This document shows positions 24,901-59,751 of a DNA stretch of 64,000 nucleotides, piece after piece. The position numbers were made by a program, and so were the translations under genes. Source of the stretch: Paramyrothecium sp. XJ0827. Taxonomy: Eukaryota > Ascomycota > Sordariomycetes > Hypocreales > Stachybotryaceae. The stretch is taken from contig JAJFPB010000006.1 of assembly GCA_020881915.1 (NCBI GenBank), positions 4,030,001-4,094,000 on the forward strand, in the 5' to 3' direction. The stretch's first letter is position 1. Every line of letters begins with the position of its first letter. A model generated the notes under the pieces. The model made no database searches and was not told the DNA's origin. It saw only the letters and a program-made list of their open reading frames with translations.

Positions 24901-25268
24901 AGGGCGTCATTGCGTTGAATGATTGCGTTGAGGAAATGTGTCGTGCCAATCGTGAGGGCGACGATGGCTGTCCTGTCGATGGGGGCCGTAGTACCGACGC
25001 TATCACCGTCGGCTGAGATTGAGACAGGTTGGGAAAGAAGTGTTGTGAGCGTCGTGTCTATACCCTTCGTCACATCGGGCGTCGTAGGCGACTTGTTGGC
25101 TGAGATAACGGCCGATGTGCCTGGCCTTGATAGATCAAGCAAGACCGAGTCGGTGTTTGTTCCTAGTCAACTACAATGAGTACACCAAACTCAATACGCA
25201 GGCGAAACTGGCTTACCGCCAACATCAACCCCAATAACAAGAGGCCCTTGGGTTTTATATGGCATCAT
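21924..25268 (-). CDS. Hydantoinase/oxoprolinase - DUF917 (S-methyl-thiohydantoin desulfurase-like) fusion protein
   Basis: A 1059-aa cytosolic protein with two enzyme modules. Exons are 25268-25217, 25162-22916, 22856-22234 and 22181-21924; their lengths sum to a multiple of three. The N-terminal half is a hydantoinase A/oxoprolinase of the actin-like ATPase fold: IGVDVGGTNTDSVLLD is the phosphate-1 loop, VVVVDVGGTTSDVG the second phosphate loop and SIGLGGGSI the later glycine motif. From about residue 620 it continues as a DUF917 domain with LGCGGGGSPHATYL and DGDLMGRAYPNFEM, the latter split exactly by intron 2. The family hydrolyses five-membered cyclic amides; the fungal substrate is unknown. 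No partner hydantoinase B gene is adjacent. Confidence 0.85.
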
Positions 25269-27452: not shown

Positions 27453-28952
<1,500 letters not shown>

Positions 28953-34045: not shown

Positions 34046-34900
34046 CTAAACAGCAACAGCCGGCCCGGGAATGATGTACTTCGAGTTGTCTCCCGAGTAA
34101 ACGTTGTAGAGAATGCCAGGGTCGCTTGCGGAGTACGCTCCTGGGAAACTAACGCCACTTGGCACAGAGCCCGAGCCACCCGAGACAGATATTTGCTACG
34201 AACGTAAGTATTAAGCGCTGGAGTAGGATCATGATTACTTACGAAGCAACTCATGTAGAATTGAGCGCCACCAGCGCCCCCAGCAACGTGAAGGGCGATC
34301 ACCTCGGCGCGGACAAGGTAGTCACCAGGAGGCAGGTTTGCGGGAACTGCGAGAACAATTAGCTGTCTGCAAAACAACTTTGTCAGCCGGGAGCTTACCA
34401 GTGAACGGGAAGCGGCCGCAGTTCTCGTTGAGATAATCGGTGCCCCAGAGGTCGGCATCCGCGTTGTAGCCATACTCGGCAACCTTGAACCACGGATCTG
34501 AACCATCGGCCGTGGTGGCATCATCCACCAAAGCCATGTACACAATGACAGGACCATCATGGTTGCCGCCGATGGCTGGCCTGGTGCAGCTGCGCTCGTT
34601 GGGCTGTTCGTGCATCTCAACTTCAACAGTAGAACCCGCTGGAAGGGTGATCAGCGTCTTTCTTCTTAAAAGTTGCAAACGATGAGGGTTACCTGGGACA
34701 TCGCAAACACCAGAGACACCAGCGGCGCCGTTGACGTTGCAGCGGAGATCGTTGCCGCTTACGCTTGTGACGGGGCTGTTGCTCGAAGGCCGACGAACAC
34801 AGCTGTCTGCTTGGTCTACACCATTAACCCAGAGCTGCTGGAACGTGGCGTGACTGGCAGCTAGACCGGCACTAGCCAGGATCGCGAAGGCGGACTTCAT
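34046..34900 (-). CDS. AA9 lytic polysaccharide monooxygenase
   Basis: Copper enzyme that oxidatively cleaves cellulose or related glucans outside the cell. Exons 34900-34693, 34638-34399, 34346-34243 and 34195-34046 sum to 233 codons plus stop. The signal peptide ends before HATFQQ, so His17 becomes the N-terminal His of the copper brace. The second copper His is in GGNHDGPV (about residue 96). ALHVAGGAGGAQFYMSCFQ carries the His/Gln/Tyr cluster of AA9, with Tyr as axial ligand. No cellulose-binding module follows. The last intron splits the Cys-Phe/Gln junction cleanly. Confidence 0.9.
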
Positions 34901-36059
34901 CTTGAATGATTGGTAACTCTTTTGACGAATGGATTATGTAGATAGGCGGAATGGGGAGGTCATCATGTGCTTCCTGGGAACACGGCGCTTTAAGTAATTC
35001 AAGCGGCTGGCCTCAAGACCAGCAAGCAAGCGCGGACGTACCTGATCCCGTTTCACGACTCTGCAAAGTCGGAACCGCCATCCGCTGAATTGAATCAGTG
35101 CAAATCGAGAAGGAAGGGAGCGAATCAACTAGATACGAAAGCATTCGATTCGACCTGATCTGCATGCCGATCAACTTCAGAGTGAATAACGGGGTAGCAT
35201 GGCCTCGACACATGTGATCACCCAGCTTGCGAATTTGACTTGTCGAATCGGCCCGCGGACCTGCTTAACCGTCAGATGTAGTGGCTTGGCCATGCGCAAT
35301 GACTTCTTCCACGGCAGCGATGAAGATCAATACTGATTCAAGAACGGAGGCAAGAGCCGCATTGTGGGCCCAATATAACGAGCTCGGAGGAAACAGGCCT
35401 GGGATCAATCTTCCTTTAGAAGCAAATTGCAACCAATAGATTACAGGTTAGAAGAAGCTCTCGGCCAAATCTGTCTGGTATACATGTTCAGAAAGAATTA
35501 AGTATGGGGTTTTGCGGTTCTCCGGGCCGTGCGCACTGCCGCATCACGACCCAAGTTACCAACTTCAAAGGTTCTTGAACCAATTCCCCTGCATAGCGAT
35601 CAAGAATCTCTGTCCAAAGTCCACTGATGTCATCCTTGATGTGAAATTTCTTGAGCCAAAAATTTCCTCTCCTCAGGCCTGATTGGGGCGCGCTCAATAG
35701 ACCGGATGCAACTTCGGAGCAAGCTGTCCAAGGATTAGAAGCTGCGATGACATCATTTTCCCAGACCACAGTCTCTGCGGTAATTAAGATTGCGCTGCGA
35801 GATTTTCAGAATTATGATTAAGGGCACATGTTCATATAATAACGCAAAAGCTCTTCAAGCTAGGAACCAGCGGTAATTATTGGAAGCTATCAATGCACGC
35901 TCAAAGCTAGCCAGCTGCTACGCTTTGAGAAACCTTCGGCAGCTATTTTTCTTGTCTCCTTTCCCCAATGCGTATGTAGCGAGGACCCGAAGTTTGTTCT
36001 TGAAGGGCAAGTATATAGATATCGAACTCTTAACTTTCCATCGATCCCACTGAGTATCA
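34901..36059. other. 1.2-kb spacer between AA9 and P450-A genes
   Basis: The AA9 promoter occupies the left part. A minus-strand 93-codon frame at 35488-35769 is listed separately. Nothing else seen. Confidence 0.4.
35488..35769 (-). CDS. Orphan exon-like ORF
   Basis: A 93-codon minus-strand frame with protein-like composition (DDISGLWTEILDRYAGELV and LKLVTWVVMRQC) and an acceptor-like CGCAG just upstream. It has no ATG and no recognisable family. It may be the last exon of a lost or undetected gene. Confidence 0.2.
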   Translation of the reverse strand: MVWENDVIAASNPWTACSEVASGLLSAPQSGLRRGNFWLKKFHIKDDISGLWTEILDRYAGELVQEPLKLVTWVVMRQCARPGEPQNPILNSF

Positions 36060-38062
36060 CTATACCCTCGGGGAGGTAAGCCGTCTCACCAACATCGTGT
36101 TTGGTGTGAAGTAATCTTGGATTTCTTTGGCCGTCATCCCCTCGGGCAGCTTCAAGTCGAAACTAGTCAGAATACGTGATAAAATAAGCTTAATTTCGTT
36201 GGTTGCAAAGAAACGCCCTGGACATGCGTGCTGGCCGTAGCCCCATGTCAGATTTTCCCGCGTTGCCGTTGCAAACTGATGCAGATCCTTGTTCTTGTAG
36301 CCGAAAGGATCAGCGCGTTCGCCAGTGCGGATGTGGTAGAAGCGATAAGGATCAAAAACCTTGAAACAGTTAGTATGCGAACGACAACTGTCCATGTAAA
36401 TCCGAGATTTCGTGCTCAGAGTGAGAGTTTCTTCGGCATTAGAAGAAAGGATTGTTACGCAAAGTACCTACCTGGGCCTGCGGGTAAATCGTTTCGTCGC
36501 GGAGCTGCGCAATATGCGGAACTTCCACTATAGAGCCGGCTGGAATTGTCTTTCCGTCGTGTAGATGGATGGGATCCTGTACGTAGCGCACATAGCGTGC
36601 TAGGGCAGAAACGCGAGTTAGCAATTATGTCTTGGTTGGTAGGTCCAAGAGTTGACGAGGAGTAACGTACTCAATCCTAATGGGTGCATTCTTTGAGACT
36701 CCTTCATGACGCTGTCAAGTAATTTGAGCTGTGGTAATGAAGGTACCGTGAGTTTACCGCCATGCTCTGCCATCGTAGCATGTATCTCCGCACGGAGCTC
36801 ATCGATAATACTTCCGCCGTGCAGAAGAAGGTCGTACAGTCTACACGTTAAATTGCGTCGAAGTCAGCATCTGTCACCTTGTCTGTTGACGTAGCTGGGA
36901 GTAAAAAGTCGAACGAGAACATGAAAATACGTACATGGATGTAGCGGTCAACGAGGCTGTATGGAGAGCTACCCAAGTTAGTTGGAGTTGCTGATTGGCA
37001 ACCTCTTTATCGTCCTTGGAATCTGCAAACTCGTGCTTGTTAAGCATCCACTGCAGCATATCGTTGGGCACTTCTTCGCCGTTCTCAATCATCTTCCTTC
37101 TCCGTTCAACGATAGGCACCAAGAATTTGAGCGCGTCACGCTTTTGCCTCCGCACGCTCCAGATATGAGGAAGGAAGGGACTGATGATGCCACGCAACGG
37201 CGCAGGCCACCATTTGATCAAGAAGCGCGCTATGAAGGCCGTTGTGGTAAAGTTGGCAGCTGCATCGAGCCATTCCTTTCGCCGAGCCACGTCATGCCCG
37301 ATGAAGATAGTCCCGGAGGCGATGGCTACGATGCGAGCTAGGGCCTCGTCGATAGTGATCGTTGTCCATTCATCACCGGACGGTCCTGTTCCAGCCGGGA
37401 GAATCTCCGTCTCAACTGCTTCATCCACAGCTTTGGCAAGACTGTCATGAATACGACCTTCCATCAAATTCCTTAGAACGGATTCTAAGATCTTAAACAA
37501 GGAGGGGACACCTTATTCTTGGTACCTACCTATGTTTCGAGTGAGATCCGTGAAGATGGTGTGGATCATAAACTTGGACACTGAGAGGCCGGTGTGTTTA
37601 GCTTCTAATGTCTGAAATGTAGGATTAGCAGAGTTCATAAGGGCTCGGAAGTCTTGATAAGAGCATCATACGATAGCTTGAGCTTTGTCTGTGGAATTTG
37701 GGTCCTTTTCCAGTGTCTGATAAAGCTCATCGAAGTAGGAATTCGGAATCATCAACCGATCGCCTAGGTCCATGTCAATCATCGCAATTCATACCCAATG
37801 TGACATTCTTTCACGCACCATCCGCAGTCGTGACCCTGTATACGGAGTCCTTGAACTTGCGATAGCCCTCACGATAGAGCGGTTCAGCATCGAAGATGGA
37901 CTTGGTCAAGCCACTATCCACGGCTGGAAACGTCTTGCGCAACCGGCGAAATGAGAGCAGTCTGAGACCTAGGTTTGTCAAAAGCACCATCAATGAGCTG
38001 AACACAAGTATGTAAATCTTGTTAGTCACATTGGGCAAGTCTTGGTGGCGTAGCAGGTCCAT
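36060..38062 (-). CDS. Cytochrome P450 monooxygenase (P450-A of the triterpene cluster)
   Basis: ER-anchored haem monooxygenase, 521 aa from seven exons: 38062-37819, 37763-37672, 37611-37530, 37484-36935, 36840-36671, 36599-36472 and 36359-36060. Phases agree throughout. A hydrophobic anchor (YILVFSSLMVLLTNLGL) opens the protein. KESQRMHP supplies the ExxR pair of the K-helix and WGYGQHACPGRFF the haem-binding loop, with Cys at about residue 468. FDPYRF precedes it as usual. The family resembles fungal terpenoid P450s such as ent-kaurene-oxidase-like enzymes. It reads in the same direction as the cyclase-GT gene 659 nt away. The likely job is oxidation of the triterpene core; the position oxidised cannot be told. 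Confidence 0.85.
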
Positions 38063-38721
38063 GTTTGCGGCTCCAGAACATCAGTTACAGCTCGGTGGTT
38101 AGGGTAGACGGAGGTGTAGAGGCAGATGTAATTCTACCAATACGTTTTCAGTTCTATCTTATTGACAATGTATTATAAAGCAAATAAAGCGGACACACAG
38201 GGTGTTCGGCAGCAAGGGGGAAGGGTGGAACAAGATCCTAGTTCTCAAAGGTTGATGATACACGCACCCTCCAAGCTAGTAAGTACCGATACATATGAGT
38301 CATGGTCCCTACCGTTCAGGGTCAAATCCCGGATCTGACGTGCAGAACAATGGGTTTACATGCCCTGCGGTATGATTACTGTCAGCCGCTGCCGGCATGC
38401 GCATGCCGCTAATCAAGGTGGGTTGTCCGGGAGCATAGCCCTGCTTACTGCCTGTTTGGACTCGAATGTTGAGGTGATCATCTCTTTCGGAACACGAAAG
38501 TGGACTGATACGCGTAGAGATCAATTGGGATGGGGAATCATGGCGACATTACGGAGCTATTCAAGATACTCTACGACGCCCGAGAACTACTCCAAATCCT
38601 TGATTATTCAGGCTAGCTCTGAGCAGGACTACATGCACGAGCAGAAGGCTGGCTTGTAAATCGGTTAGCGAGCGATGGCACTTGTGCAAAACTAACTTCA
38701 TTTTAGAAACTGGAAATCTGA
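38063..38721. other. Promoter of P450-A / 3' flank of the cyclase-GT gene
   Basis: Non-coding. A B-box-like sequence around 38320 was examined as a tRNA and rejected. Confidence 0.45.
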
Positions 38722-41700
38722 CTAAAGCTTTTCCTTAAACTTGTCCTGGAAACGTCCTGATGCCAACAATTGCCAGGTCTTTCGAACATGCCCCTGCAGG
38801 TCACGCCCAGACTCCTCCTCTTCGACCCAGGCCAAGTGGACCTTGCTTTGCCTGATCCTCGCTTGGAAGACTGGGTCCTGTGGTTCGCTCCGAGGCGCCC
38901 TTTCCAATCCCAAAATCGCGAACAGAATATGGAGTAAGACATAATACAAGCTCACAAGTAGCCCCAAAACACCAGAAATACGCGGTTGCGCTGTAGTGAG
39001 AGGATCGCCCGCGGATCTTGGCCTACCGTGTAAATCTAAATCAGCCCAGTGTAAGACGCCCTGAGACACCAAGGAGGCGGCAGCAACGCCTGAGAGTGTG
39101 AGCCCGTTGTTTACATGGCGCCAAGGGGCTTTCAAGACAGGGATTAGGCTGCAAAATGGGCCCTGTGACTTTTTGATCTCACGTTCAAGCATATCTGCGA
39201 CCACTGCGCCTCCATCCTGTTCGTTGCGGAGCTTAGTGGACAGCTCCCTGCTCCGTCCGAGGTGACTTCCTGGTAACAGGAGCTTCCGTAGCGACGGGAC
39301 AAGGTTGTCCTCTGTCACGTCGCGGAAGCGAATTGGCTCGGGTCCGAGTCCTAATTGATAGGTCTTGGCGGCCCAGAAATTCTGGTCGAGGAAGAAGGGT
39401 AGAACCAGCATTGGAACACCAGCTTTCATACCCGCCGCTGTGTGTCCTGCACCTCCATGGTGGACGAATCCTTGGACACGGGGCAAGAGCCAGGCGTGTG
39501 GAACGTCTCGGATGAAGTAGATATCATCCAGGGCAGATAACATCTCTACAACATCTTTGGGCCATGTACCGCAGATGACAGCTTTCGCCCCAACTTTTGC
39601 AACCGCTTCGCAAAGGATGGATAATGTTTTGCCGGGGAATGGAATGTTCATAGATCCAAAACCAATGGCGAGAACTGGCTGGTCTGTTTCAACAAAAACT
39701 TCAAGACTCTTGGGCGGCTGGAAATCGTTTTCTGCAGGAGAGAAGGCGTAACCAGCAACTGTGACAGAGTCACCCCATTCTGAAGCTCTTGGAACGACAT
39801 GGGATGACCATAGACAAGCATGGGGCACGTCCGTATTTTGTGCTGCGAGAATCGATTGTACCCAAGGCCGTGATTTCATCCCATAGGTGTTTACGCGGAG
39901 ACGATTCAAAAAGGGCAAAAAGGCGAGAGTGTTCCTGTAGCTTGATGAGTAAATGTGACAAAGCGAGTAGCTGTGGAAAACGTACATTGCTTGGATACAG
40001 CGATAACTCATGAGGTTCCACCAACGCCCCAATTGTGTCTTAGGCCCGGTCATCGTTAGATAATGAGGGAATTCCGCTGATGGCAACTCTGGCTGAACCG
40101 ACACAAGCGTCAGGGGGACATTAAGAGCCTCGGCAGCATGAATATGAGACTGCGTAGGTGGGTTAGAGGCAATGATATCGGCCACAAAGGGACGACTCGA
40201 CAACGCGCCAATCCCAAGTTTGGTATCGGGCAGGGTTGAGATTGAGGGACTATCGATCGCCGCGCTCCAGAACCTCTCCATCATATCATGAAATCCCCTC
40301 TGGAGGGCCGTAAGTTCTCCATTAAAGAACGAACGAACGACGTTGGGTTTCTCTCCCAAGACTTTGGCGAACGCCTCTGGACTGCCACCAACGGAGTAAA
40401 ACTCCAGGCCCTGGCGTTCCACATGCTCCCGATGAGAATCATGTGTTGCGATCCTGATGCGACAATCATGTTTTCTTTGAAGTAGGCCGGCGATGCGAAG
40501 GAAAGGCTGGATGTCCCCACGACTTCCAACGACCATAAACAGGACGTTGGTTTTATTCAGAGTTTGTATAGAATGTGACGCAAGCTCAATGGCCCCAAAA
40601 TTGCTCTTCGCTTCTATGTCAACTGCCTCGATATATCTGCTGAGTGCCATGATGGGAAAGGCATGATGATAATAAGGATATCCAAGGTAAAGGACCTTTG
40701 GGAATCCAGTCCCTGTGTACACGTCTGTTGGCCAGGATACGCCGTGTTCCGACTTGACAGTCTGATGAGTTACAAGCCATTGGATACCTCGCTGAATAGG
40801 CAATGATGAGGCCGAACGATATGGCAGCAAGGCTTGGAGGGCCCAGGCAGTCTGTGCAGCAGTGCTGACTCCTCGGCCGACCAGGTCAGGCTCGGTATAC
40901 GACCTCAAAGTCTCACCCCATCCACCATCGTCGTTCTGGATCGACTCAAACCAATCAATGGCTCGTTTGACCGACTGCCGAACTTGAGCACTGCTCTTGG
41001 CGAAATGTTCCAGGCCCCTGAGAACATTACTGGAGCCATAGATGTAATTGTTCCCCCAACGGCCCCACCAGGCGCTGGTTGGCGCTTCCTGTTCTTTCAT
41101 GAGATAGCTTACAGCCCGCCACGAAGCATCGTTCATTCTCCGGCGGAGATCTGGGTCGACGCGATGCCCCTGTCGGTGGGAGAGTAAGAACCCAAAGCAC
41201 TCGATGATGCGTCCAGTGATGTCGGATGAACTTGGATCGCACAAACTATCCATGTCGCTAAATGGGATCTTGTGAAGCCAAAGTTTGTCGTTGCCGTGGT
41301 CGAAGGCGGCCCAGCCACCGTCAGGGTTTTGCATGCCGATCATCCATTCGACAGCATCCGCAATGGACTTTGAACCGATCATGCCCTCGACATCTTGCTT
41401 CACGAGCGCCATGACCACGACAGCGGTGTCATCCACATCTGGGTACCACGTGTTTTCGTACTCGAAGCTCCAACCGCCACCCTGGCTTGTGGGGCAGTAA
41501 ATGCGCCAATCTCCTCGTTTAGGATCGTTGAGTTGCCTGGCTTTTGTCCAGTCGGCAGCTCTTTGGACGCGGACATCACTACCGGCCCCTGCATCACACA
41601 AGGAACTGGCCATCAAGGCCGTGTCCCATACGGGTGACACCGTTGCGGCAATTCTTTTGCCCGTGGAGTCTTCCATGGCCAAGCGCTCCAGTGCAGCGAG

Positions 41701-42816
41701 GCCCAAGCGTACAGGTTTGCAATCAAGAGAATATCCCTCAAGGAGAAGAGCCCATATGCTACCGTGCATTGGCGGGAAGAAACCAGCCCAATCACCGGCT
41801 TCTTCTTGGTGCTCCAGCAGCCATTCGATACATCTCTTACGCGACAAATCACGCAATGGCTTAAAGTCTCTGAACCCATTGCCTAGTTTTGCAATCAACT
41901 TGTCGACGGCCGTGAACCCAAACTCGATATAACTTCTTTCCCAGAAGAGGGTCGATAGAGGCGGGGCATACGGAACGTTCTTGTTCTGTGGATCTACCCA
42001 CAGTTCATCTAGGAAGTTGTTATTCGCACTCAATCCATTTGGCAAGGCATAGACGGGTTGGTGGTGGTCAACGATCAGGACAGGGATAAGTGTGCTCCTC
42101 GCCCAGGATGATAAGACGTAGATATTTAGAGGCGACGATGGTGGCATAAGAATGAGCTCGGCTGGTAACTAATAGGTCAACGAGATTAGCACCTTGACGT
42201 AAGAGAGGCAGTTACATTGTTGTAGACGCATCTAAGAATTGGATGTGTTCACAACGTGAACCGTGACAAGGGAACAACTTACTTGAGGGATGGCACTCCA
42301 TGGGAACAATCCAAATGTGGCAAGAAAGAACCGAGTGAAGAAACGAACTTTGGCAACTCCGCCGCTTCTGATCATAAAGTCCCGCGACCGGAGCATGGCC
42401 GGCTCATCAGGGGAAACCCCAAGGATCTTCAGCGCCAGATATGCCTCTGTCGTCGTAGAGACATTCCCCGGCAGTTCAGGAGCGAGACCCCACGAGCCGT
42501 CTGGCTTTTGGTCCTGCAAGAGCCACCGACGGATGGTGTCTCCATCGGCCTTCAGGTCTAGTCCCATGGCGTACTTGAACATGACGTACTCTGATGTGAA
42601 AGTAGCATCAGAAGAAACCTCGGCCACCCAGTGGCCATCGGGCCTCTGGCAGTCGAAGGAGAATGCAGTTGCACTCTCCACGGCCTGGAAGGCGAGTTGT
42701 CTGAGTTCTTCTTCACCCATGTCTGAATCTGTGGATGTAGCTTCATTCAATGAGCATATGCCCTGAAATGGGGCCGTGGACATGCCGCACTCTATATTGG
42801 CATGTTTGGGAGTCAT
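38722..42816 (-). CDS. efuA-like: Triterpene cyclase (SHC type) - glycosyltransferase fusion
   Basis: Core enzyme of the cluster, 1309 aa. Exons 42816-42283, 42168-39986 and 39934-38722; the second intron is 51 nt, in frame, so unspliced RNA would also stay open. Residues 1 to about 690 are a squalene-hopene-type cyclase: QW motifs (QKPDGSWG, QNPDGGWAAF, QNDDGGWGE) and DVDDTA at about 422-427, whose central Asp protonates the substrate. Residues from about 718 are a sterol-type UDP-sugar transferase: VVGSRGDIQPFL at its start and HHGGAGHTAAG (about 1064), then PFFLDQNFWA, in the sugar-nucleotide site. A hydrophobic helix (GVLGLLVSLYYVLLHILFA) lies near the C-terminus. This order is known from EfuA (enfumafungin) and FsoA (fuscoatroside). 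It should cyclise squalene or its epoxide and attach a sugar. Ring type and sugar are inferred by analogy only. Confidence 0.93.
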
Positions 42817-43966
42817 TTCTGCGTATACCTACCAAATCCAAGCCGTATTCTGGCAATTCTGCCTATCACATGTATGACCCTCGGGCCCGCCAATCCACCT
42901 CCCCCGGTGCGACAATGTCAGTCTAGGCTCCATTCGTCATTTTTCTTATCATCACTGTGGCTGCTCACACCCTCCTTCTCGGGTGCGGGTCCAACCTGAG
43001 GTTTTCCGATGGACACCCTCTTCGAGGCTGTTAGCACTCGACGGCCAAAGAAAATATTTCTACTTTTGGCTGAACTTCCTGTTGGCGTGGTCTTACAGCA
43101 ACCAGACTGGTAGCTTTCTGTCTTCAAGTGATGGTTCACGCGTCTGTCAGCCTACATGTATGTAGCAGTCCTAACCGACGATCGGTCCCGACACATGTCC
43201 GTCAGCCTGAATATGTTTCCGGGGTGGGGGTCAACATAGTAAGCCGAAAAGTCTGCGGTTTGTACGTTGATAGACTAAGGGCTCGGGGATGTCGAAGTAG
43301 TCAAAAGTGTGGTCATGTGATGATACATGACTGGGGCCTCATAACAGACAGCGTAGGATTGTTTGGATGATATCCACATATCTGATCTTGATTTTGGGCT
43401 CCATTTTCGGCATCCTCATCCAATCCCGTGATGGATGTTCTCATCGCTAGCTGTCTCCGTTGATTGCACCAATCAATCTAACTGCATTGAGCAAGTGTCG
43501 CTTTGCTTCCAATAAGCTGACTGTAATACTTGCGCAGACTGATTACCTTCAAGGGACGCGTACCCAGGTCCGGCAAATGTTGGTTCCAGATTACGTGCGT
43601 CCATGCGGCTCAGCAGAATCCACAAAGCGGGAGGCTTGCCGATCCTGCAGGGATAGAAGATAACGCGTAAAAACGCCAAGCAAGCGTCACAACACACGGC
43701 CGGAAGATTCTTACGAGAATGGAAATATTCAGTAATCGGGGCATCCAAATTGGAGTGAAGGCATTGTGAGCAGAGAGCCGATGTAAGCAGTATGTCGTGC
43801 TGGCCAGAATGCCAAGGCATGGCACGAAAAATGAAAAGCAAGAGGTAGGTAGCCTAGAGACGAGGACGGGGTGCTTGAATCCCCCCATAACCACTCCCTC
43901 CCTCCTTGAAACCAGTCTTTCATGCCCCAATTTGGGCCGAGTTGCGTTTGCGATCCGTAGCTCAGG
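42817..43966. promoter_or_regulatory. Divergent promoter of cyclase-GT and P450-B
   Basis: 1150 nt without coding capacity between two divergently transcribed cluster genes, thus likely their shared control region. It holds an everted CCG-N5-CGG at 43175-43185 and two copies of GTCAGCCT (near 43147 and 43202). Confidence 0.6.
43175..43185. promoter_or_regulatory. Candidate Zn2Cys6 site, everted CCG-N5-CGG
   Basis: CCGACGATCGG lies in the divergent promoter, within the larger inverted repeat ACCGA-N3-TCGGT. Zn2Cys6 dimers often bind paired CGG triplets, and a cluster regulator of this class is encoded at 50684-52931. I did not find the same element in the other cluster promoters by eye. Confidence 0.3.
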
Positions 43967-45798
43967 ATGTCTCTCAACAGTATGGTAGAGCTCTGGGGCT
44001 CGTACCTTGCGTCCCTCCTCATTTTATGGTTTGCGTTTCTTGTCATATTTGACCTCTTGCTTCCATCCTTACGAGGTTCTCGTCATCCAAAGTCGACCAA
44101 ATTCCCCGATGCAATCCCTGCCATCATAGTTCAGGATCAATGGTTCAAGACAGCCAGGGCTTCTTTTCGCCAGCTCACAAATGGCATGAGCACATTGCTA
44201 GATGGTTACAGTCGGGTAAGTAAAGCAATGCTACCAGGACAATGAGTAAATGTGGCTGTGCTAATGACATGATTTCGACTCGAAGTACTCTAAGAATGGC
44301 CGCTCATTCATAGTGCACGAGCCTAGCTTCCAGCAGGAGCTGATGCTTCCACCAGAACACATAAGATGGTTTTCGGGACAGCCTGATTCAAAAATGGCAA
44401 GTAGAACTATACGGGAGGAGAGGCATGCCGTGGGATACTTGCATGTGGGCGTGGAATTCGATTCCACCCTGTTCTTTCTCGAGAGAATTATTCGCGATAG
44501 TCTCACACGAGGCCTCGATGCCATTCAAGCCCCTATGCGCGAAGAAATTTGTCGCGGATTTGATGAGGTTTTCAATAACAAGGATATGACGACGGATGAG
44601 TGGAAGACTATCAATGTCTATGACTCCTTTCAAAAACTTATTCTCCCGGTCATGACCCGGGTCTTCTTTGGCTTGTCGTTGAGTCGTGACCCTTCCTTTC
44701 TGAGACGATTCGAGAACTACAATCTCGCGATGGGAGTTGGAACAATTGTGATCGGCCAGCTGCCGAAGTTCTTCAAGAGTGTCTTTGTGCCACTCTTCAA
44801 CTTACCTCTTCGGTACTATAGGCGGATGACTTTGAACAGAATAGTCCCAGAGGTGAAGCGCCAGCTTTCGGGAGACGCCGCCGGCAACCAAGAGGAAAGC
44901 TTCATCTCACAGTGTGCCAGGGTCTCGGCAAAGTCGGCGACCTTGGCTTCTGCGAAAGATCCTCAGATCCTCGCCGAGTGGCTCATGCTAGCAGTAAGAC
45001 CCTAAACGTATCCTACTTGTGAATTAGAGATTCAATGTTTCATTAACACGAGCGCAGGGATTCGCCGCCATGTCTTCTACAGTCATCCAGGTTTCAAACA
45101 GTCTGCTGGATATCCTGAACTGTGATCCTGAGTTGGATCTCTATCATACACTTCGCAAAGAGGCAGAAAGCGTGCTTAAAACCGAGATTGATTGGAACAC
45201 AAGCGCACCATTCAATGGCCTTGTCTTATACGACAGTGTTATCCGAGAGAGTCTAAGATGTCATCCGATCCTGATCAAAGGGTTGACGAAAGAAGTTGTT
45301 GATCCAGAGGGTCTCAAGTTGCCTGATGGCACCCATCTCCCCAGAGGCTCATGGGTTGGAGTGCCGGTTCTTGGTGTTCATCGGGATGAGCGGTTTTATC
45401 CTAACTCCACAGCTTACGACCCCTATAGATTCGTGAGATTAAGACAAGAAAACGACAAGAAAACAACCGATCAAAGCATATCGAAAAACGAGTTTGATGC
45501 GGCACGGCCCAGCGTTGAGTACTTGGGTTTCGGCTACGGCCGACACGCTTGGTACGTCATTGCATCTTTCTATGTGATGAAGCTCTCAAGCTACTTAGAC
45601 AAGCACTAACAAAAGGATTCAAGCCCCGGTCGATGGTTTGCAGTGTTGATGATGAAGACAATTCTTGCTCACTTGACTCTGCATTACGATGTGGAAGCAA
45701 CAGGTCCGCAGCCGGAGACAAGTGTCATAGGAGACGCAGCGTTGCCGCCAATTTCGGCTACTATTAGAGTCCGAAAGAGGACAACCATTAGCTCCTGA
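43967..45798 (+). CDS. Cytochrome P450 monooxygenase (P450-B of the triterpene cluster)
   Basis: 541-aa haem monooxygenase, exons 43967-44215, 44286-44993, 45058-45551 and 45624-45798. The N-terminal anchor is YLASLLILWFAFLVIFDLLL. VIRESLR is the ExxR motif; GFGYGRHACPGRWFAV is the haem loop, with Cys near residue 484. That Cys codon is split by the last intron (45552-45623): TG ends exon 3 and C opens exon 4. A nearer AG at 45614-45615 would lose the Cys, so the acceptor at 45622-45623 is the functional one. It belongs to the same broad fungal terpenoid-P450 group as P450-A, but the sequences are clearly different. It is divergent from the cyclase-GT gene and shares its promoter region. Confidence 0.85.
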
Positions 45799-46204
45799 TT
45801 TAATGGAAGAATTATATTATGCAGTGTTCACTTTGTCCAGTTATTTGTAGGCGTCTGTTTTGTTTGTTCATTGGTTATTGTACTCTAGATCTAGTGTTTT
45901 GGCTTGGAAGGCTCTTTCAAACCAAGCATTCAAATATTACACGCAATAAAAGAGGGTGTATTTATTGTCATACATTCACTTTGGTTTCTTGTAGACATGG
46001 GGTAAAGTGTTGCTCCAAGTGAGATACTTGTATTGGTGATCCAAAGTCGTGCACAAATTGAATATGACGTTCAGGGCCACTGCCGCCGAGAACCGACGGA
46101 ACGATTGTATCTGAGATTTAGAACTAAGGAAGGCTACCGTCGCTGTGAAATTGCTGAGACGCGAGTCAAAGGCGCCCAAAACATTGATTGAGAGGCGTAA
46201 CAAG
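45799..46204. other. Convergent spacer between P450-B and acyltransferase genes
   Basis: 3' flanks of two converging genes; A/T-rich, nothing else seen. Confidence 0.45.
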
Positions 46205-47527
46205 CTACTGAATGAAGGCCGGCAATGGGATGATTGGCACACCATTGCTCCTCTGGAGAGATGGATAAATCCAAATGGGCGTTGACCATACCAACCAAGC
46301 CAATGTCCACAGATAACCAAGGGGTTTTAATGACACGCGCACACTAAAAGAATGCCCTTGGCTTGGTCCTTCACCAGGTGACCCATTAGAATGTAGAAGA
46401 CCTTGCACCGCATCTTCTAGCATGATCCCAAATGCTTGCATAACAAAAAACCGCAAGGCACCACTCTCCTGTAATGGGATTCCCTGCGAGACATCGCTGA
46501 AGACGTGGAAAATGCCCGAGACTGCGAAAACAGCAACAGTAAATACATATCTACCAAAAGTGTTTCCCCTTTGAAGGCCAAGACATGTGTAGGTGAGAAA
46601 GTGAGCGATGCCGCCGCAGCCCCGGCGAAGAAGTTGATGGTAGAAAGTCCTGATGACCGGTTAGTATAAGGGTTTCTTGTGTCTCCGGACACACGTGTAG
46701 AGGTCTTACCCCCAAAATTGGCGGATCGAGTAGGAGTCACTGACGGAGCCGAACACGGGCGGCCAGCTTTCGACTTTGGCTATGCCCAAAGCAACTGATA
46801 AGATTGCAAAGGTAGAGTACACGGCTTGAATGATAACATATTGGGACGTCCAGTAGACTAGTACGCTGGCAGCCCTCACAGCCCCTTCAAGGGCAGAGAT
46901 GCTACTCGCACGTGAGAAGAATGGAATACGCTGAGAGGAAAAAAGGACAGAATTTTCCCTAGGGTTACTCGGTAAATGGTCCAGAAGAATGAGGAACAAG
47001 ATGCAAGCGCTAAGCTTGAGAAGCTTTTCACGTATGAAAAGATTCTTTGAGGGGACATATGTCGGGTCTGTTCTCGAGAATGGCGGAATGTTTTTGACAG
47101 GCCATGGAGTAGCTGGAAATCGGCTTTGTAGGGCGACGCCAAAGCCAAAGACAAGACGATCGAACACCCTCGAAAATGTATTTTGTTCTTTAACAGAGAT
47201 TGCCCCAGGCTGGGTTATGTTTTTGACTCTTGCCGGCTTCAATCCACCAGCATTGCTTGTTGGCCCGTGGAACTCGAAGGTCCATTTGTGAATTAGAGCC
47301 GCGTCCGTGTAAAGTACCACGGTGTATACGCAGGCGGCACCGATAAAAGCTCGCAGGACCGGATGACTGATGTCTTCCAAGCCTGGGAGCTGGAAATATG
47401 GACATAGTACCACAACCGTGAAGGCCCCTGGACGGAGGATTGAGTCTGGTCTCGTGAAGCCCAGGATGGCACTCATAACAAGGATCTGGAGGCCGAAGAG
47501 GCCAATGGAGGTTGAAATCGAACCCAT
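46205..47527 (-). CDS. Membrane-bound O-acyltransferase (wax-synthase-like acetyltransferase)
   Basis: 420-aa multi-pass protein, exons 47527-46710 and 46649-46205, joined through an intron with a perfect CTAAC branch. RQFWGTFYHQLLRR is the conserved loop of fungal wax-synthase-domain (MBOAT-like) acyltransferases; SGIFHVFSD carries the likely catalytic His (about 321). At least six hydrophobic segments are visible, including AWLVWSTPIWIYP near the end. Relatives acetylate hydroxyls in meroterpenoid and trichothecene pathways. In this cluster it most likely uses acetyl-CoA to acylate a hydroxyl of the triterpene or its sugar; acetate is inferred, not shown. No frame defect. Confidence 0.83.
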
Positions 47528-48335
47528 GGCTCAGATGATGCTCGAAATCGTAGAAAACAATGTGATAAGCAATAAAGAATGATATTGGTTTGCTTGATTT
47601 GTTTGATTCCATCAGTTTGGATAGGCAAACACCGAGATCCTCCATATCCTATACCAATTGCCCGTGTAGTTGGCCTGGAGCAGCCTGTATTGCTATTCGC
47701 ATATCCCTATTATGGTTTGATGGATATTCATCTATCGCAGTCACACTAGTGTAGGCAATCTTTCCGCAGCTAATGGCGAGGCTGTAGCATCTGACGTGAT
47801 CTTCAGGATGGGGTTGCTTACATTGGCACGAAGGAAGATAAGGAAATGAGACTCTATTGAGGATCAACCCCACTACACCTACTTTCCCGCCATGCGGTCC
47901 GCTTGAGATTGCGAGCTACCGAACGAAGTATATGTACGAAGTGTCGGATTATGGGGCGTAACTGTAATGAAGATGACAGCCGGAGCCTGCTAGAGCTGAC
48001 CATCATGCATTCAGCACGGCCCCCGGGGCTACGATGGCGCACCCGAGGTGAATTGCAAAGGACCGCGTAAGCAATGCAATAAGCCTATTGGAAATCAGAG
48101 ACATTGCTGTTTCGGGGAAAACCTGCTGCTCAAGTCCTGGACAGACTCGTAATCTAACCTCGAAGAAGGCGCAATCACCATCTGCTCTTGAACGTGGCCC
48201 GATAACCTCGTCATAATTTGCTCAGGGGCAAGTGTGCTGTCCCTCTTTCATCTCAGGCTTAGTGCAAGCCTCCTAGTTGTTCTCATCTAAGTTTTCACCA
48301 CTCAGTTGTCTGTTTGTGATCATTCGACCAAATCA
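47528..48335. promoter_or_regulatory. Divergent promoter of acyltransferase and P450-C
   Basis: 808 nt of non-coding sequence between two divergently transcribed cluster genes. No clear shared motif with the 42.8-44.0 kb promoter was seen by eye. Confidence 0.45.
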
Positions 48336-50214
48336 ATGGACAACATGTATTCCAAAATTGAACACTGCGTTCGCTTTCTTGGCCTAGGTTCGAGACTGGG
48401 AGACAGCTTCACTACCCTGTCCATTGTCCCTGTATTGCTCCTTGTATGGTTTGTTACCTTCAAGACAGTCAAGTCCAATGGCGAGCCACATCTCAAGTCC
48501 AAACGTCCACCTTCATTCCCGTCCGGCATCCCGATACTCGGTCACCTGCCTCAGTTCTTATGGGACGGGAACCAACTCATGTCGAGCGCAGCGTAAGTAG
48601 GCCCTTCCTTTCCATGGCCACTGCAAAGCATCCAAGCTCATCTTTTAACTAATTGTTTTGCCCTCGACAGTCGGTATCTGAGCCCAGCCGTGCCGACCAA
48701 AATCTCACTGTTTGGCTTTTCCACTTACATTGTGTCCGGTCCTGAGAGTATAGTTAGCTTTTTCAAAGAAAATTTCTATCTTTCGGCAACCTCTCGCAGC
48801 ATCACTGTCATGGAAAATGCCTTCGGCTGTCCGCATGAGCATGTAGACCAATTCAGGCCCCGGATTGCGCCCGATGGACGTCCAGATGAGATTGAGCAAT
48901 TGATTCATCGCAGCATCCAGAACGGACTCTCAGGTCCACATCTGGAGTTGCTCACGGCTCAATTCCAAGAGAGCTTGGCCAAGAGTCTGATTGAAGAAGC
49001 TACAGAGGGGCATCAAGATGAATGGATCCACGTTCCTGACTTGCACGGTTTGGTGCAGAAACACGTATTCCGAGCAATGGTACATACATTGTTTGGCCCG
49101 TACATGATCTCATTAAACCCAACAATTGCGGAAGACTTTTGGGAGTTCAATAGATCCGTACGGTCACTCTTCATGGGCCTGCCTTCATGGATGACTCCTA
49201 CAGCGCAAAGGATGCGCTCGAGGATGCTGAAGAGCATCAAGCGGTGGCAAAAACACGCTCAAGAGCATTGCGACATTGAAGAGGTGGGCGACGTCGCGTG
49301 GGAGCCCTACTATGGGAGCCGTCATGTTCGGGAAAGACAAGATTTGCTTACTCGGCGCGGCATCCTGGATGAGACAGCAAGGGCGGCTGAAAATTTTGCT
49401 TTTATGTGGGCGTAAGTCTATGATGCTACCAGTCTCTCCCAAAGCTATGTCAAGAAGCTGACTCTGCCAATGCAGCACAAACTCCAATTCCGGACCCGCC
49501 TCATCCTGGTTCCTCCTTGAGGTTCTCCAGAACTCTCAACTGAAGGAAGAAGTCAAAGGCCGACTCTCTGATGCACAAATAGCGTCAACGGCAGCCTCGG
49601 AGAAATTGGAAAAGTCCCTTGTACCCATCGATCCTGCAACGCTCTTGGCGGATCCTCTTTTCCAATCCGTGTACGCAGAGGTTCTTCGGCTCCGTGTGGC
49701 GGTACTGGTGGTTCGAGAGGCAGCCAGAGACGATTTCACATTTTGCGGCTGGCAAATCAAAAAGAACGAGGTCCTGACCGTCTCTTCCCGTACCGAGGCA
49801 ATGGATCGAAACATCTGGGGCACAGGAGGCGCTGACGAGCCGCATCCCCTCCATGAGTTCTGGCCTCACCGGTTCGTTGTGGATCCCGCTGATGGTGACA
49901 GCGGGCCCTTGAAAACCCAGAAGCGGATTAAGAAGCATCCTGCGACTGAAACATCGTCAGCGCCATACTTCTCCATGGATGGTTTAGCCGGATCTTGGAT
50001 TCCCTACGGCGGTGGTCGGAGCCTCTGCCCCGGCCGCCACTTCGCGAAGAGAAAGATGCTGATCACCACAGCGGTCTTCATGTCGCTTTATGACATCGAG
50101 CTCATGAGCTCTGAGAATGCCGTAGTTGACCTGAACCATTTCGGCTTCGGCACCATGCCCCCCAAAAACAAGGTACCAGCGCGTATACGCCGAAAGACTC
50201 TTTCTCATGCCTAA
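48336..50214 (+). CDS. Cytochrome P450, CYP7/CYP8-like class (P450-C of the triterpene cluster)
   Basis: 578-aa haem protein, exons 48336-48592, 48671-49411 and 49476-50214. The anchor is LSIVPVLLLVWFVTF, then a Pro-rich hinge PPSFPSGIPILGHLP. The I-helix region reads TNSNSGPASSWFLLE, without the usual acid-Thr pair. This is the pattern of the CYP7/CYP8 (sterol hydroxylase and prostacyclin-synthase-like) group. AEVLRLR gives ExxR, and PYGGGRSLCPGRHFAK the haem loop with Cys near residue 517. Such enzymes can hydroxylate sterols or rearrange oxygenated substrates. In this cluster it may carry out a harder oxidation, such as C-C bond cleavage or an isomerisation; that is speculation. Confidence 0.85.
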
Positions 50215-50683
50215 GTTTTGGGACAAGACTATCAGATGCACGAAGAGGACAGCGAATGTCCGATAACTGCGTATTCTGAATGCAAAATTCTTCTCTCCCT
50301 TGTCAGTATTTAGATACTAGTTGCTACTACACATCTGTAACTGCATCAAACTTCAAAATAACACCCTGCCATCTAGAAATCTAGGATGATATCGTGATGC
50401 GCCCGTGCCGTATGCCATCCAACATACATGACCAGGCGCCCATAGAACCAAAATCATTGCTGCGCGCGATAGGCTAATAAAAAGAATGTTATCTTCGCCT
50501 ATTTTAGAATGCTACCAGTAAGAACTCGCAACTTGCACGGCCACTTCTTGCTGGGCAGTAGTTCTGCTTCCGTGCTGCTGGTTAGCTGGATCAAGTAAGG
50601 TCCAACAACAAACTCAGCTCGGTTCGCGTAATCGGATTTGGAAACAGGAAACTTTGGGATTTGCTCCTCTATATGTGCTTTGT
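50215..50683. other. Convergent spacer between P450-C and regulator genes
   Basis: Two 3' flanks; no coding or repeat feature seen. Confidence 0.45.
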
Positions 50684-52931
50684 TTACAACCAGCTCTCAT
50701 AGGCATCGTCGCCGCTTAGAAGAAGCGCTTCAAGTGGATCTAACCACAGACCCGGTTCGTCCATGTCATGGAACGAAGTCAAGTCGTCTCCATCCCTGCC
50801 CGATTCGGCAGGTCTCTGACTCTCCTCATCTTCAACGCCTCCGCGGGCGTTGATATGTGCCTTGTTGGCAATAACCTTGATCCACTTCTCGATACACTCT
50901 TTCCTTTCCCTGAGCTTCCACGATACCAAGTCCAAGAAGTCGTTGGACCATTCACAACAGTGTGCTGCGGCCATTTCTATCCTTGCTTCTTCGAATCGTG
51001 ACGCGAGACGATCTAATAGATCTAGCATCAAATCGTTCGAGCTGCCGCCAACACCAATGCTCGTGGAGGCAGCACCGATGTTGGCCATATCTGTGTTGGG
51101 TGCATAAGAGTCTCCTTGCCGAAGGAGATTCAGCAGCGCGAGCCTAGCTCGACGAAGAAGGACCACGGTGACATTCGTCAAGTGCAGGTATCCTGACATG
51201 GGCATGTAAAAGAAATGGCACACTGGTATTTTCAGCCAGTCCTCGAACCAAGCCCTCAGCGCAGTATCAGCGACGTCCTTTTTGTCCGTCGAAGGTGTGT
51301 GAGAGTAGCCCAGTGTGTGGTGTAACGCAAGCAAGGCCTCGTGATTTCGGCTGTGGTTCGCATCCACTAGCTGCGGCTCCGAAAACTGCAGCAGCGCAAA
51401 GTTACGATGGCTGGATAACAAGTCTGTGCTACCGTGTTAACTCAGAACATATTGGTCAGATATGATTTCTACGAACAGCTGTGGGGCTTTTGTTGTCCCT
51501 TGGAGTCCCGTAGGCTTTCCAAACCAGCCAAGAGGTCGTCGCAGTTCGCACTCCAAGCATTTGAAGACGGCTGAACATCGACTGACTGGTCGCTCTGTCG
51601 GATTTGGGCGATTATTTCATTCACACGCTGGGCACAAATAAGTTGCGCCAGGACTTCATCGGTTTGATACTCAAGTCCATCTTGCAATTCTTGGAGTTGT
51701 CGTTCCATGTGTTGAGTGAAATGCCTCCCTGGAGAATTCACCTTCTTGAATGCTACGGCAAAACTAGCATAGTTGCGTCAGCTACCGTAGGGGAGGCGGA
51801 ATAGCCATAGCCCATGGGAATCAGGGCACAAACCTGGAGTTGAGGTACCACATAGCAAGCACAGCCCGTCTCTCATCATTTAACATCGCTCTAGGTTCTT
51901 CTGGGTCAATCCCTTGAAGAGCCATATTTCTTAATACAGGCTTGCTCCGCGGCCTATCCAGCCTCATGTCGGCAATCATGCTGGAAGCAAGATGTGCGAG
52001 ACCATTGAAGTGTCCATGAGCAAAACAGAAGTAGTGATAGAAACCCAGGAAAACAATGACGCTTTGTAAGAGGTCCAGAGACCTATCAGGTCCCATGAAC
52101 ACTGCCTCGGAGATCTGTTTCAATAACAGCCTGCTTTGATTCCACATTGATCGACGATGGCGTACCGAAGCCACCATCGTGATTGCCTTGGCGAGGAATG
52201 GCCGGGATCGTTGTAGTTCGATAGCGGTGACACCATCAGGGATGACAACAAATGGAAATTGAGGACTCAAGCGTGTGCGATAAATCGAGAGAAGACCATC
52301 ATCAGACTCTATGGGTCCTGGGTCATCCTCGCCCTCCGTTTCCGAGACACAGGTACAGGTGGGAGTGGGGAATGGATGGAACCCCGGTAACGAGGTCGAA
52401 GCGCTGAAAGCTTTGGTAGGCTCGGCCTTGACTGGCGCAACGTAGATATTGGGCTCTGATGCTGCTGCATCATTGCGCAAGTCATCACTCGTTGCTGCAT
52501 CGATCCCTGCGATTGGAGGAAAGGCTCCATGGTTCCGAGGGGAGTTTGTGGTGCTGTTGGAACTTTCACCTTTGTGTCCCAGCTGCGAGATTGCAAAGTT
52601 TGACAAATTCCTTGATAGAAGCGGATCAGTCTGATGCATGGATTAAAGCTGTAAGATCTTGGTCCCTTACGAGGCATTTTGGCGGATTCTTGTCTTTCTT
52701 GGCTTGCGAATCTGCTGGGGGCAGGATATATTGAGGCTCTGACACCTGTTGGCTCAACTTATCAGTAAAGGTCACGAGACTCAGCCAAAGGTCCGACGGG
52801 AAGTGTGCAAGATGCGCACAGAAGCCTTACCTATTGCACCTGGGTTCCTTTGTCTCCTGTGAGCGAATGCATCTCGTCTTCGCTTTTGCGCAGGGGTCAC
52901 ACGCGGCTCCCCACCCTGCAGACCACTTCAT
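50684..52931 (-). CDS. Zn2Cys6 transcription factor, likely cluster regulator
   Basis: 659-aa nuclear regulator in five exons: 52931-52831, 52745-52671, 52610-51834, 51763-51477 and 51423-50684; lengths sum to exactly 660 codons. The zinc cluster is at residues 11-42 with C11, C14, C21, C32, C35 and C42, crossed by intron 1, and a basic linker follows (RKPRKTRIRQ). The third exon opens at 52610, not at the nearer AG, because only that acceptor keeps the frame. The middle region (FPFVVIPDGVTAIEL, then MVASVRHRRSMW) matches the fungal-specific factor domain of TRI-type and secondary-metabolism regulators. It sits at the cluster's right border, convergent with P450-C, which fits pathway control. 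Confidence 0.85.
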
Positions 52932-58405: not shown

Positions 58406-59751
58406 CGTGCGTGCCGTAACAGCCTGCTCTTCTTGTGGCCAAGAAAAAGTATTTTCACAGTTGAGAGAGCTTGGAGTTCGACGTGTCAAGATAATTTGTG
58501 AATTGCGTCGGAAACCGCGTCCAAAGTGTAGAGTTGAGTATGGAGCAATATTTTATGCACTTTTTAATCTCAGGGGAAGGACGCGTTGGAATGCGCAAGT
58601 GCGCGTTCCATAACCCCGCCTCCTCGCAGCGAATCAGTTCTTTGAACAATATAACTGGTGAACCCTCTGAGGCAACATCTCCATGCATATGACGAAACAG
58701 CGGACACGTGATCGAGGTAACAGATATTTTCAGCTCTCAGCCGGCTGAGTTACCGTAGCATTACGTGGTCACCTTGTCCATGATACAAGCTACTTATGAA
58801 TTCGAGGCTGGCTCTGCGTAGACGTAGACAATTGCATTTTCCAGTCGCTGCATTTATGGAGAAAAGGGGTGCATTACAAGTACAGTTAGGTGCGCTGCTT
58901 TCGTACGCGATAGGTTTGAGAAAACTTGCTATGTATCTCTTCTTATTCAATCTGATCATTGCAAAAGAATTCCTTAACTTATTCCAGGTTCCTTAGCAGC
59001 TCACGTGAGTCTTCAGGATTTGTCAAAGTGGTGTACTGTATCTCGGGCATGCAGTCTCTGGAAAGCGGATACTAGACTCCATAGCACGCTGCTAATGCGA
59101 TAGAAGGTGCTGTATTGTGAGTTCTATCGCGACACTTTATCTTTTCTTATCGTATGCGGGTTGCTCAACTATCCAAACCATTTCATCCATTTCGGCTCAG
59201 TAACAGAACCGCAGTACACTATACTTTTTTTGAGGTCATCCTCTCTACACATTGTGATCGGATGCGTCTCCCGATGGAGTAGGTAGCCCAGGGAGCGAAG
59301 CAAGTTCGCACGCCTCAAGAGGCCGGATTTGCCACGGAGAGAGAGCGCCGAGAAGGAGGAGAGGTAGCTGGGATTGTAGCACTGCACCCCAGACTTTCCA
59401 CTCTGCACCCCACACTTCCCCAGTCCGGGAGATGTCAATGTCCCTCCACATTCCCGAGTTCGGGCACGATACTCCAGGTTTGTTTTTACGAGAATCAGGG
59501 TGCTTTTGTGCTAAACCCAGTGTATGTTGTTGGGGAGGCCACATAGGTGGCTGCTGTGTGCGAAAGCTCGGCATATCACAAGGCGAGGCGAGTTAGAGAA
59601 CCCCGAGCCGATGTTGTGAAAATAGAACTGAGAAAAGGTATAATAAGCAAAGGAATAGCCGGCCTTGAAGGAAGGAAGTGTCTCGGAATCATCTAGACAA
59701 GATCGTCACTCCAAATCTTCCTCGTTGCGCTCGCGCCTCCTCTTCTCTACC
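58406..59751. other. Intergenic region upstream of the GH5 gene
   Basis: No supported gene. The zinc-finger model might extend leftward in frame to about 58489. Short frames further right show no motif. Confidence 0.4.

What the first reader, a model, noticed from the sequence alone, without database searches (positions are those of the whole stretch)
36060..52931. Triterpene-glycoside biosynthetic cluster of the enfumafungin/fuscoatroside type
Six adjacent genes form a coherent pathway: cyclase-glycosyltransferase fusion, three distinct P450s, an O-acyltransferase and a Zn2Cys6 regulator. All six models splice into full-length frames, so the cluster looks functional. Enfumafungin-type compounds inhibit beta-1,3-glucan synthase and are the basis of the drug ibrexafungerp, so any new member is of interest. 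The set of three P450s and one acyltransferase may define a product not yet described.
Basis: partly seen in the sequence, partly recalled or inferred. Interest (0 to 1): 0.95.

Follow-up and report, generated by a model that had tools for sequence, protein, structure and literature searches.

The report
Enfumafungin-type triterpene glucoside gene cluster
A fungal genome carries an intact gene set that looks able to build a sugar-bearing triterpene of the family that gave the antifungal drug ibrexafungerp; the kind is known, but this copy and its exact product have not been characterised.

Summary
In detail: six adjacent genes at 36060-52931 splice into full-length frames. They encode a squalene-hopene-type cyclase fused to a sterol-type glucosyltransferase (TC-GT), three P450s, an MBOAT acyltransferase and a Zn2Cys6 regulator. 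I add one missed TC-GT intron (39935-39985, in frame, no stop), giving 1309 aa.

The cluster reading holds for four genes. P450b and P450c sit in one merged model in Paramyrothecium foliicola, 83% identical each. P450a and the regulator rest on adjacency only.

Most likely product: a fernane-type triterpenol, C2-hydroxylated, 2-O-acetylated and 3-O-glucosylated as in fuscoatroside, plus further oxidation. No 2-oxoglutarate oxygenase (EfuI role) was found in the window, so enfumafungin itself is unlikely. Ring-E cleavage is untested: no efu/fso sequence could be obtained.

The fso cluster also holds three P450s and one acetyltransferase, so the gene set alone does not prove a new product. New member of a known kind.

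The parts
36060..38062 (-). P450a, 521 aa, 7 exons; heme motif GYGQHACPGRFF present; cluster membership by adjacency only
   Evidence: elsewhere in the own genome at best 34% over a long stretch, up to 45% over about 120 residues
38722..42816 (-). TC-GT fusion, 1309 aa after correction; exons 42283-42816, 39986-42168, 38722-39934; DVDD cyclase motif at residue 422, HHGGAGHT glucosyltransferase motif at residue 1064
39935..39985 (-). second TC-GT intron (51 bp, no stop in frame) inside the glucosyltransferase domain, after residue 906; 45 of 50 listed homologues of 840-960 aa end at the homologous place
42817..43966 (.). divergent promoter region between TC-GT and P450b; no motif shared with the other promoters found
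43967..45798 (+). P450b, 541 aa, 4 exons; residues 120-537 are 83% identical to the first part of a merged P. foliicola P450 model (P0156)
46205..47527 (-). MBOAT_2 O-acyltransferase, 420 aa, 2 exons; probable 2-O-acetyltransferase (inference)
47528..48335 (.). divergent promoter region between the acyltransferase and P450c
48336..50214 (+). P450c, 578 aa, 3 exons; nearest solved sequence CYP7A1; linked to TC-GT genes in other fungi; probable C2-hydroxylase by position next to the acyltransferase (inference)
50684..52931 (-). Zn2Cys6-type regulator, 656 aa, 5 exons; membership by adjacency only

Best explanation
An intact biosynthetic cluster for an enfumafungin-class fernane-type triterpene glucoside in a filamentous ascomycete, probably of the Stachybotryaceae. 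Inferred order of work, by analogy with fso/efu: the cyclase half folds 2,3-oxidosqualene into a 3-hydroxy pentacyclic triterpene; P450c hydroxylates C2; the MBOAT enzyme acetylates the 2-OH; the glucosyltransferase half then glucosylates the 3-OH; P450b and perhaps P450a oxidise the skeleton further, one of them possibly opening ring E. With no 2-oxoglutarate oxygenase found in the window, the product should be fuscoatroside-like, without the C24/C25 hemiacetal. Shown here: intact frames, domain architecture, catalytic motifs, conserved linkage of TC-GT, acyltransferase and P450c. Inferred: every reaction, the assignment of P450c, and the roles of P450a and P450b.
For: Frames and domains. Full-length TC-GT relatives: P. 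foliicola 77%, Hypoxylon texense 58%, Diaporthe ilicicola 56% (77.7% over 1274 residues to P. foliicola after correction). The cyclase half matches squalene-hopene cyclase (1gsz, E 1e-120) far better than lanosterol synthase (1w6k, 9e-43), and the other half matches yeast sterol 3-beta-glucosyltransferase (5xvm, 1.6e-33). Contig-length linkage: 14 of 35 acyltransferase hits and 12 of 36 P450-search hits, all 12 of them P450c relatives, against a mean of about 0.01 in a jitter control; consecutive locus tags. TC and P450c identities correlate over 13 genomes (Spearman 0.58, 0 of 2000 permutations as high). The TC tree puts the window with P. foliicola, Stachybotrys elegans and one metagenome row (97% SH-aLRT), then near Diaporthe and Hypoxylon at weaker support; the H. 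rubiginosum cluster is published as a likely fernane glycoside cluster (PMC8403587, passages).
Against: No efu/fso sequence was among the 120 TC hits listed of 142, so one-to-one orthology to FsoD/E/F is untested. No product or expression data. P450a and the regulator show no conserved linkage in anything I searched. P450b is only 26-27% identical to the second P450 beside P450c in two lichen fungi, no closer than long-stretch paralogues in its own genome (27-32%). The TC lies in a different subclade from Chaetomidium, the nearest row to Humicola by my recalled taxonomy, so its scaffold may not be isomotiol. No motif is shared by the promoters. No second glucan synthase gene was found (one locus, C7). 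The TC-P450c correlation could come from shared species history alone.
Confidence: 0.85

Rival explanations
1. The cluster makes a glycosylated fernane with ring E intact (peniciside, with hydroxyls at C-19 and C-20, would be a neighbour), because neither P450a nor P450b is the ring-E-cleaving enzyme.
For: Neither P450a nor P450b could be tied to a cleaving P450; P450b is not close to the second P450 of two lichen clusters. H. rubiginosum shows that accessory oxidases vary between clusters. Peniciside: PMC11371599, passage.
Against: The published efu and H. rubiginosum clusters share two P450s along with the acetyltransferase, and two further P450s are available here.
Confidence: 0.3
2. The cyclase acts on squalene and the locus makes a hopane-type compound.
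For: The cyclase is of the squalene-hopene lineage with a DVDD motif.
Against: EfuA has the same lineage and motif (PMC11371599, passage), yet its TC domain makes fernenol (PMC12667498); a fused sterol-type glucosyltransferase expects a 3-hydroxyl.
Confidence: 0.06
3. The real cluster is only TC-GT, P450b, acyltransferase and P450c; P450a and the regulator are unrelated neighbours.
For: Conserved linkage was shown only for these four.
Against: P450a is only about 0.7 kb from the TC-GT and has no close paralogue in the genome; the last protein search returned almost only P450c relatives, so it did not test P450a.
Confidence: 0.3

Closest known systems
fso cluster, fuscoatroside, Humicola fuscoatra NRRL 22980 (PMC12667498, parts 1-3 of 5 read)
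   Same: TC-GT fusion, three P450s, one acetyltransferase by gene content
   Different: fso also has a glucose oxidase gene (fsoC); no GMC oxidoreductase was found in the window. The window TC is in a different subclade from Chaetomidium, a stand-in for Humicola. Sequences not compared
efu cluster, enfumafungin, Hormonema carpetanum (PMC12667498; PMC9476466, passages)
   Same: TC-GT fusion, P450s (EfuB, EfuG, EfuH2), acyltransferase (EfuH1) by gene content
   Different: no Fe(II)/alpha-ketoglutarate oxygenase of the PhyH, 2OG-FeII_Oxy or TauD families in the window, so no C24/C25 hemiacetal expected. Sequences not compared
Hypoxylon rubiginosum candidate fernane glycoside cluster (PMC8403587, passages)
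   Same: TC-GT P0023 66% identical over 65% of the query; P450c relative P0161 56% (its listed contig differs in length from that of P0023)
   Different: the Hypoxylon cluster has an O-methyltransferase and an FAD monooxygenase; here P450a and a Zn2Cys6 gene
Paramyrothecium foliicola and Stachybotrys elegans loci (database entries only)
   Same: TC-GT 77% full length and 81% over 66%; P450c 83% over 427 residues and 72% over 571; P450b 83% over 419 residues in P. foliicola; acyltransferase 65% in S. elegans
   Different: models there are merged or cut short; seven paper searches found no report of these loci as enfumafungin-type clusters (listings of open-licence papers)

Membership tests
enfumafungin-type (TC-GT) biosynthetic cluster | squalene-hopene-lineage cyclase with DxDD motif fused to a sterol-type glucosyltransferase | tested here: met
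   intact after splicing
enfumafungin-type (TC-GT) biosynthetic cluster | linked acyltransferase (FsoF/EfuH1 role) | tested here: met
   MBOAT gene next door; relatives on contigs matching TC-GT contigs in 14 of 35 hits. Orthology to FsoF itself and the reaction not tested
enfumafungin-type (TC-GT) biosynthetic cluster | C2-hydroxylase P450 (FsoD/EfuH2 role) | tested here: inconclusive
   P450c is linked across TC-GT clusters (12 of 36); no FsoD/EfuH2 sequence available
enfumafungin-type (TC-GT) biosynthetic cluster | ring-E-cleaving P450 (FsoE/EfuG role) | tested here: inconclusive
   two candidate P450s (a, b); no FsoE/EfuG sequence available; P450b not close to the second P450 of two lichen clusters
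enfumafungin-type (TC-GT) biosynthetic cluster | product is a 3-O-glucosyl, 2-oxygenated, E-seco fernane that inhibits beta-1,3-glucan synthase | not testable with these tools
   needs extracts or heterologous expression
enfumafungin pathway in the strict sense (efu) | EfuI-type Fe(II)/alpha-ketoglutarate oxygenase in the cluster | tested here: not met
   whole-genome six-frame searches: 0 of 11 PhyH, 0 of 15 2OG-FeII_Oxy and 0 of 32 TauD matches lie in the window; which Pfam family EfuI belongs to was not seen in print, so a member of another family could be missed

The most novel reading that the evidence does not exclude
The cluster makes an undescribed enfumafungin-class glucoside: a cyclase from a Stachybotryaceae subclade away from the Chaetomidium/Xylaria one, with P450a and P450b doing oxidations that neither efu nor fso does. 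In addition the intron after residue 906 of the fusion, where dozens of relatives' gene models stop, could be a real retention switch between a cyclase with a broken glucosyltransferase and the full fusion, not only an annotation error.
Probability: 0.3. Interest if true: 0.65.

Novelty: new member of a known kind. Interest (0 to 1): 0.48.

Why it matters
Enfumafungin-type compounds inhibit beta-1,3-glucan synthase and one is the parent of ibrexafungerp (PMC12667498). In Aspergillus oryzae EfuA gave little fernenol and no glucoside, and EfmA gave no product, so a further intact TC-GT with its partner enzymes is useful material. The missed intron probably explains why many relatives are annotated as proteins of about 860 aa and should be checked before anyone clones them.

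Tried and rejected
Promoter motifs: gapped CGG pairs and shared 8-12-mers in three promoter regions gave nothing beyond shuffles (best p 0.05 among 68 patterns; 0 shared 8-mers in all three against 0.6 in shuffles). Self-resistance by a second glucan synthase: one locus only, on C7; its own drug sensitivity was not examined. P450b as the common second core P450: not supported, since its likeness to two lichen P450s (26-27%) is no higher than to long-stretch paralogues in its own genome (27-32%). Subtelomeric position: the telomere pattern matched only on C13 (9 places) while the backwards-read control matched 32, so nothing is concluded. Published report of this locus in Paramyrothecium, Stachybotrys or Myrothecium: none seen in the listings, which cover open-licence papers only; 'Myrothecium' with 'fernane' gave 0 papers. 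Nearest solved P450 sequences gave no functional lead for P450a and P450b (mostly CYP51 and CYP3A).

The third protein search used an alignment of the three window P450s. Nearly all good hits were P450c relatives, so the absence of P450a and P450b relatives there means nothing.
Full report
What is there. The window is C12:4030001-4094000 of a 51.8 Mb assembly in 15 contigs. Between 36060 and 52931 lie six genes that splice with GT..AG introns into complete frames. Pfam finds P450 domains in three, both squalene-hopene cyclase domains plus glycosyltransferase domains in one chain, and an MBOAT_2 acyltransferase. The last gene has a zinc-cluster match below Pfam's cut-off. MBOAT, P450c and residues 120-537 of P450b align cleanly with relatives; the rest of P450b, P450a and the regulator could not be checked this way.

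Correction to the model. The long TC-GT frame contains a 51-bp stretch (39935-39985) with splice signals, no stop and a length divisible by three. Without it the protein is 1309 aa and reads IQAM-NTLAFLPFLNRLRV, in register with P0002 (sequences). Of 50 listed homologues 840-960 aa long, 45 end within residues 896-918 of the window protein by alignment, that is, at this junction (residue 906); 46 of 50 if the unaligned tail is counted. So most of these look like fusions cut short by an unspliced intron. That metagenome gene callers ignore introns is my explanation for the unnamed ones; four named examples are Stachybotrys elegans P0003, Hypoxylon crocopeplum P0021, H. rubiginosum P0023 and Apiospora kogelbergensis P0047.

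Catalytic features. The cyclase carries DVDD at residue 422 and the glucosyltransferase HHGGAGHT at residue 1064. Of 23 TC hits of at least 1230 aa, 23 show a DxDD stretch and 19 show the exact HHGG-G-T motif searched for. The cyclase half is nearest to bacterial squalene-hopene cyclase among solved structures and much further from lanosterol synthase. The other half is nearest to yeast sterol 3-beta-glucosyltransferase. The own genome has other relatives of the glucosyltransferase half at 32-34% over long stretches, on C1, C11 and C7, where the cyclase family search found nothing, so they are not fused. All three P450s keep the cysteine heme motif, as read from the sequence.

Is it a cluster. 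In the P450 search, 12 of the 36 hits with a contig length (38 hits in all) do, and all 12 are P450c relatives. Jittering the lengths by up to 50 bases gives a mean of about 0.01 matches, at most 1. Equal length is taken as the same contig; that is inference, backed by organism names and locus tags where given. The unmatched hits (21 and 24) may be true non-members, or clusters whose longest contig is another one, or belong to the 22 of 142 TC hits not listed; I cannot separate these. Locus tags: Oculimacula VTL71DRAFT_9167/9168/9169 and Wetmoreana Q9181_001889/1888/1887 are TC-GT, acyltransferase, P450c in a row; H. texense Hte_010510 and 010512 are TC-GT and acyltransferase; Diaporthe ilicicola diail_480 and 482 are TC-GT and P450c. 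In Paramyrothecium foliicola one 940-aa model (P0156) is P450b followed by P450c, 83% identical over 419 and 427 residues. That fits the window's order with the opposite-strand acyltransferase swallowed as an intron, but this is inference, as no P. foliicola acyltransferase was among the hits. TC and P450c identities correlate over the window and the 12 linked genomes (Spearman 0.58; 0 of 2000 permutations as high), which shared species history alone could also cause.

Where it sits. In a quick tree of 44 cyclase domains (SH-aLRT support only) the window groups with P. foliicola, S. elegans and a metagenome row (97), then with Diaporthe ilicicola (88) and with Hypoxylon and Apiospora kogelbergensis (81); Chaetomidium and Xylaria rows lie in another subclade (100). 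Some rows have long branches, and the tool warns of one possible false join deep in the tree.

How it probably works. In fso, FsoA makes isomotiol and glucosylates O-3, FsoD hydroxylates C2, FsoF acetylates 2-OH, FsoE cleaves ring E, and glucosylation needs the 2-acetate first (PMC12667498, parts 1-3 of 5 read). FsoA, D, E and F suffice for fuscoatroside (PMC12299000, passages). EfuI adds the hemiacetal in enfumafungin. By analogy the TC-GT and acyltransferase here do the FsoA and FsoF steps. P450c is next to the acyltransferase in the window and by locus tag in Oculimacula and Wetmoreana, and shares a contig length with it in two more; the names EfuH1/EfuH2 for acyltransferase and C2-hydroxylase suggest that those two are neighbours in efu (not seen in print). 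So I assign P450c to C2 hydroxylation; this is inference from position only. P450b and P450a are left for ring E and other oxidation.

What is missing. Six-frame searches of the genome place 0 of 11 PhyH, 0 of 15 2OG-FeII_Oxy, 0 of 32 TauD and 0 of 79 GMC_oxred_N matches in the window, so partners equivalent to EfuI and FsoC are not here, with the caveat that EfuI's family was not stated in what I read. Pfam scans of 19 flank ORF stretches (18 of the 39 listed, one) show no further tailoring enzyme of this pathway type; the unscanned ORFs include many antisense frames. The neighbours are a lytic polysaccharide monooxygenase (AA9) on the left and a YTP1-like membrane protein on the right, which I take as the borders.

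Limits. No efu or fso sequence was among the 120 listed hits, so membership of the single enzymes is by domain, linkage and analogy. The original efu/fso papers (Kuhnert 2018; Cao 2024) were not read; their content is taken from PMC12667498, PMC9476466 (passages), PMC11371599 (passages), PMC12299000 (passages) and PMC8403587 (passages).

Verdict. Real, intact and of the stated class; a new member of a known kind, of practical interest because it is drug-related, but not surprising: fusions of this kind occur in many ascomycetes.

Noticed in passing
TC-GT hits of 840-960 aa, between P0003 and P0094: 45 of 50 of these homologues end at one conserved intron position in the glucosyltransferase domain; they are probably truncated models of fusions.
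   Followed up: partly
P0088, P0104, P0106, P0109, P0112, P0120: Aspergillus squalene cyclases of about 1100-1150 aa with a PF02458 transferase domain precomputed: a different cyclase fusion. P0088 groups in the tree with P0086, P0097, P0100 and P0114, for which no such domain is listed.
   Followed up: no
G000:C14:2304203-2305126 and C14:393380-394428: Two further squalene-cyclase-family loci in the genome, perhaps lanosterol-synthase types. A P450 lies about 10 kb from the first (C14:2315308-2316384) and a TauD-family gene about 3 kb from the second (C14:389762-390484), so further triterpenoid clusters are possible.
   Followed up: no
G000:C12:4230388-4231434 and C3:1046856-1048010: Two strong trichodiene synthase (TRI5) family loci, one about 147 kb from this cluster on the same contig; used only as a hint to the lineage.
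   Followed up: no
window 22875-25166: A long frame with hydantoinase/oxoprolinase domains followed by an S-Me-THD-like domain.
   Followed up: no
window 27456-28466, 9307-11640, 34325-34933, 59659-60912: Several polysaccharide-active enzymes around the cluster: GH18, GH92, AA9 and a GH5 protein.
   Followed up: no
P0073, P0081, P0082 (Xylaria): These Xylaria relatives end in a tail like that of the fusion although no glycosyltransferase domain is precomputed for them; the glucosyltransferase part may be deleted or mis-annotated.
   Followed up: no
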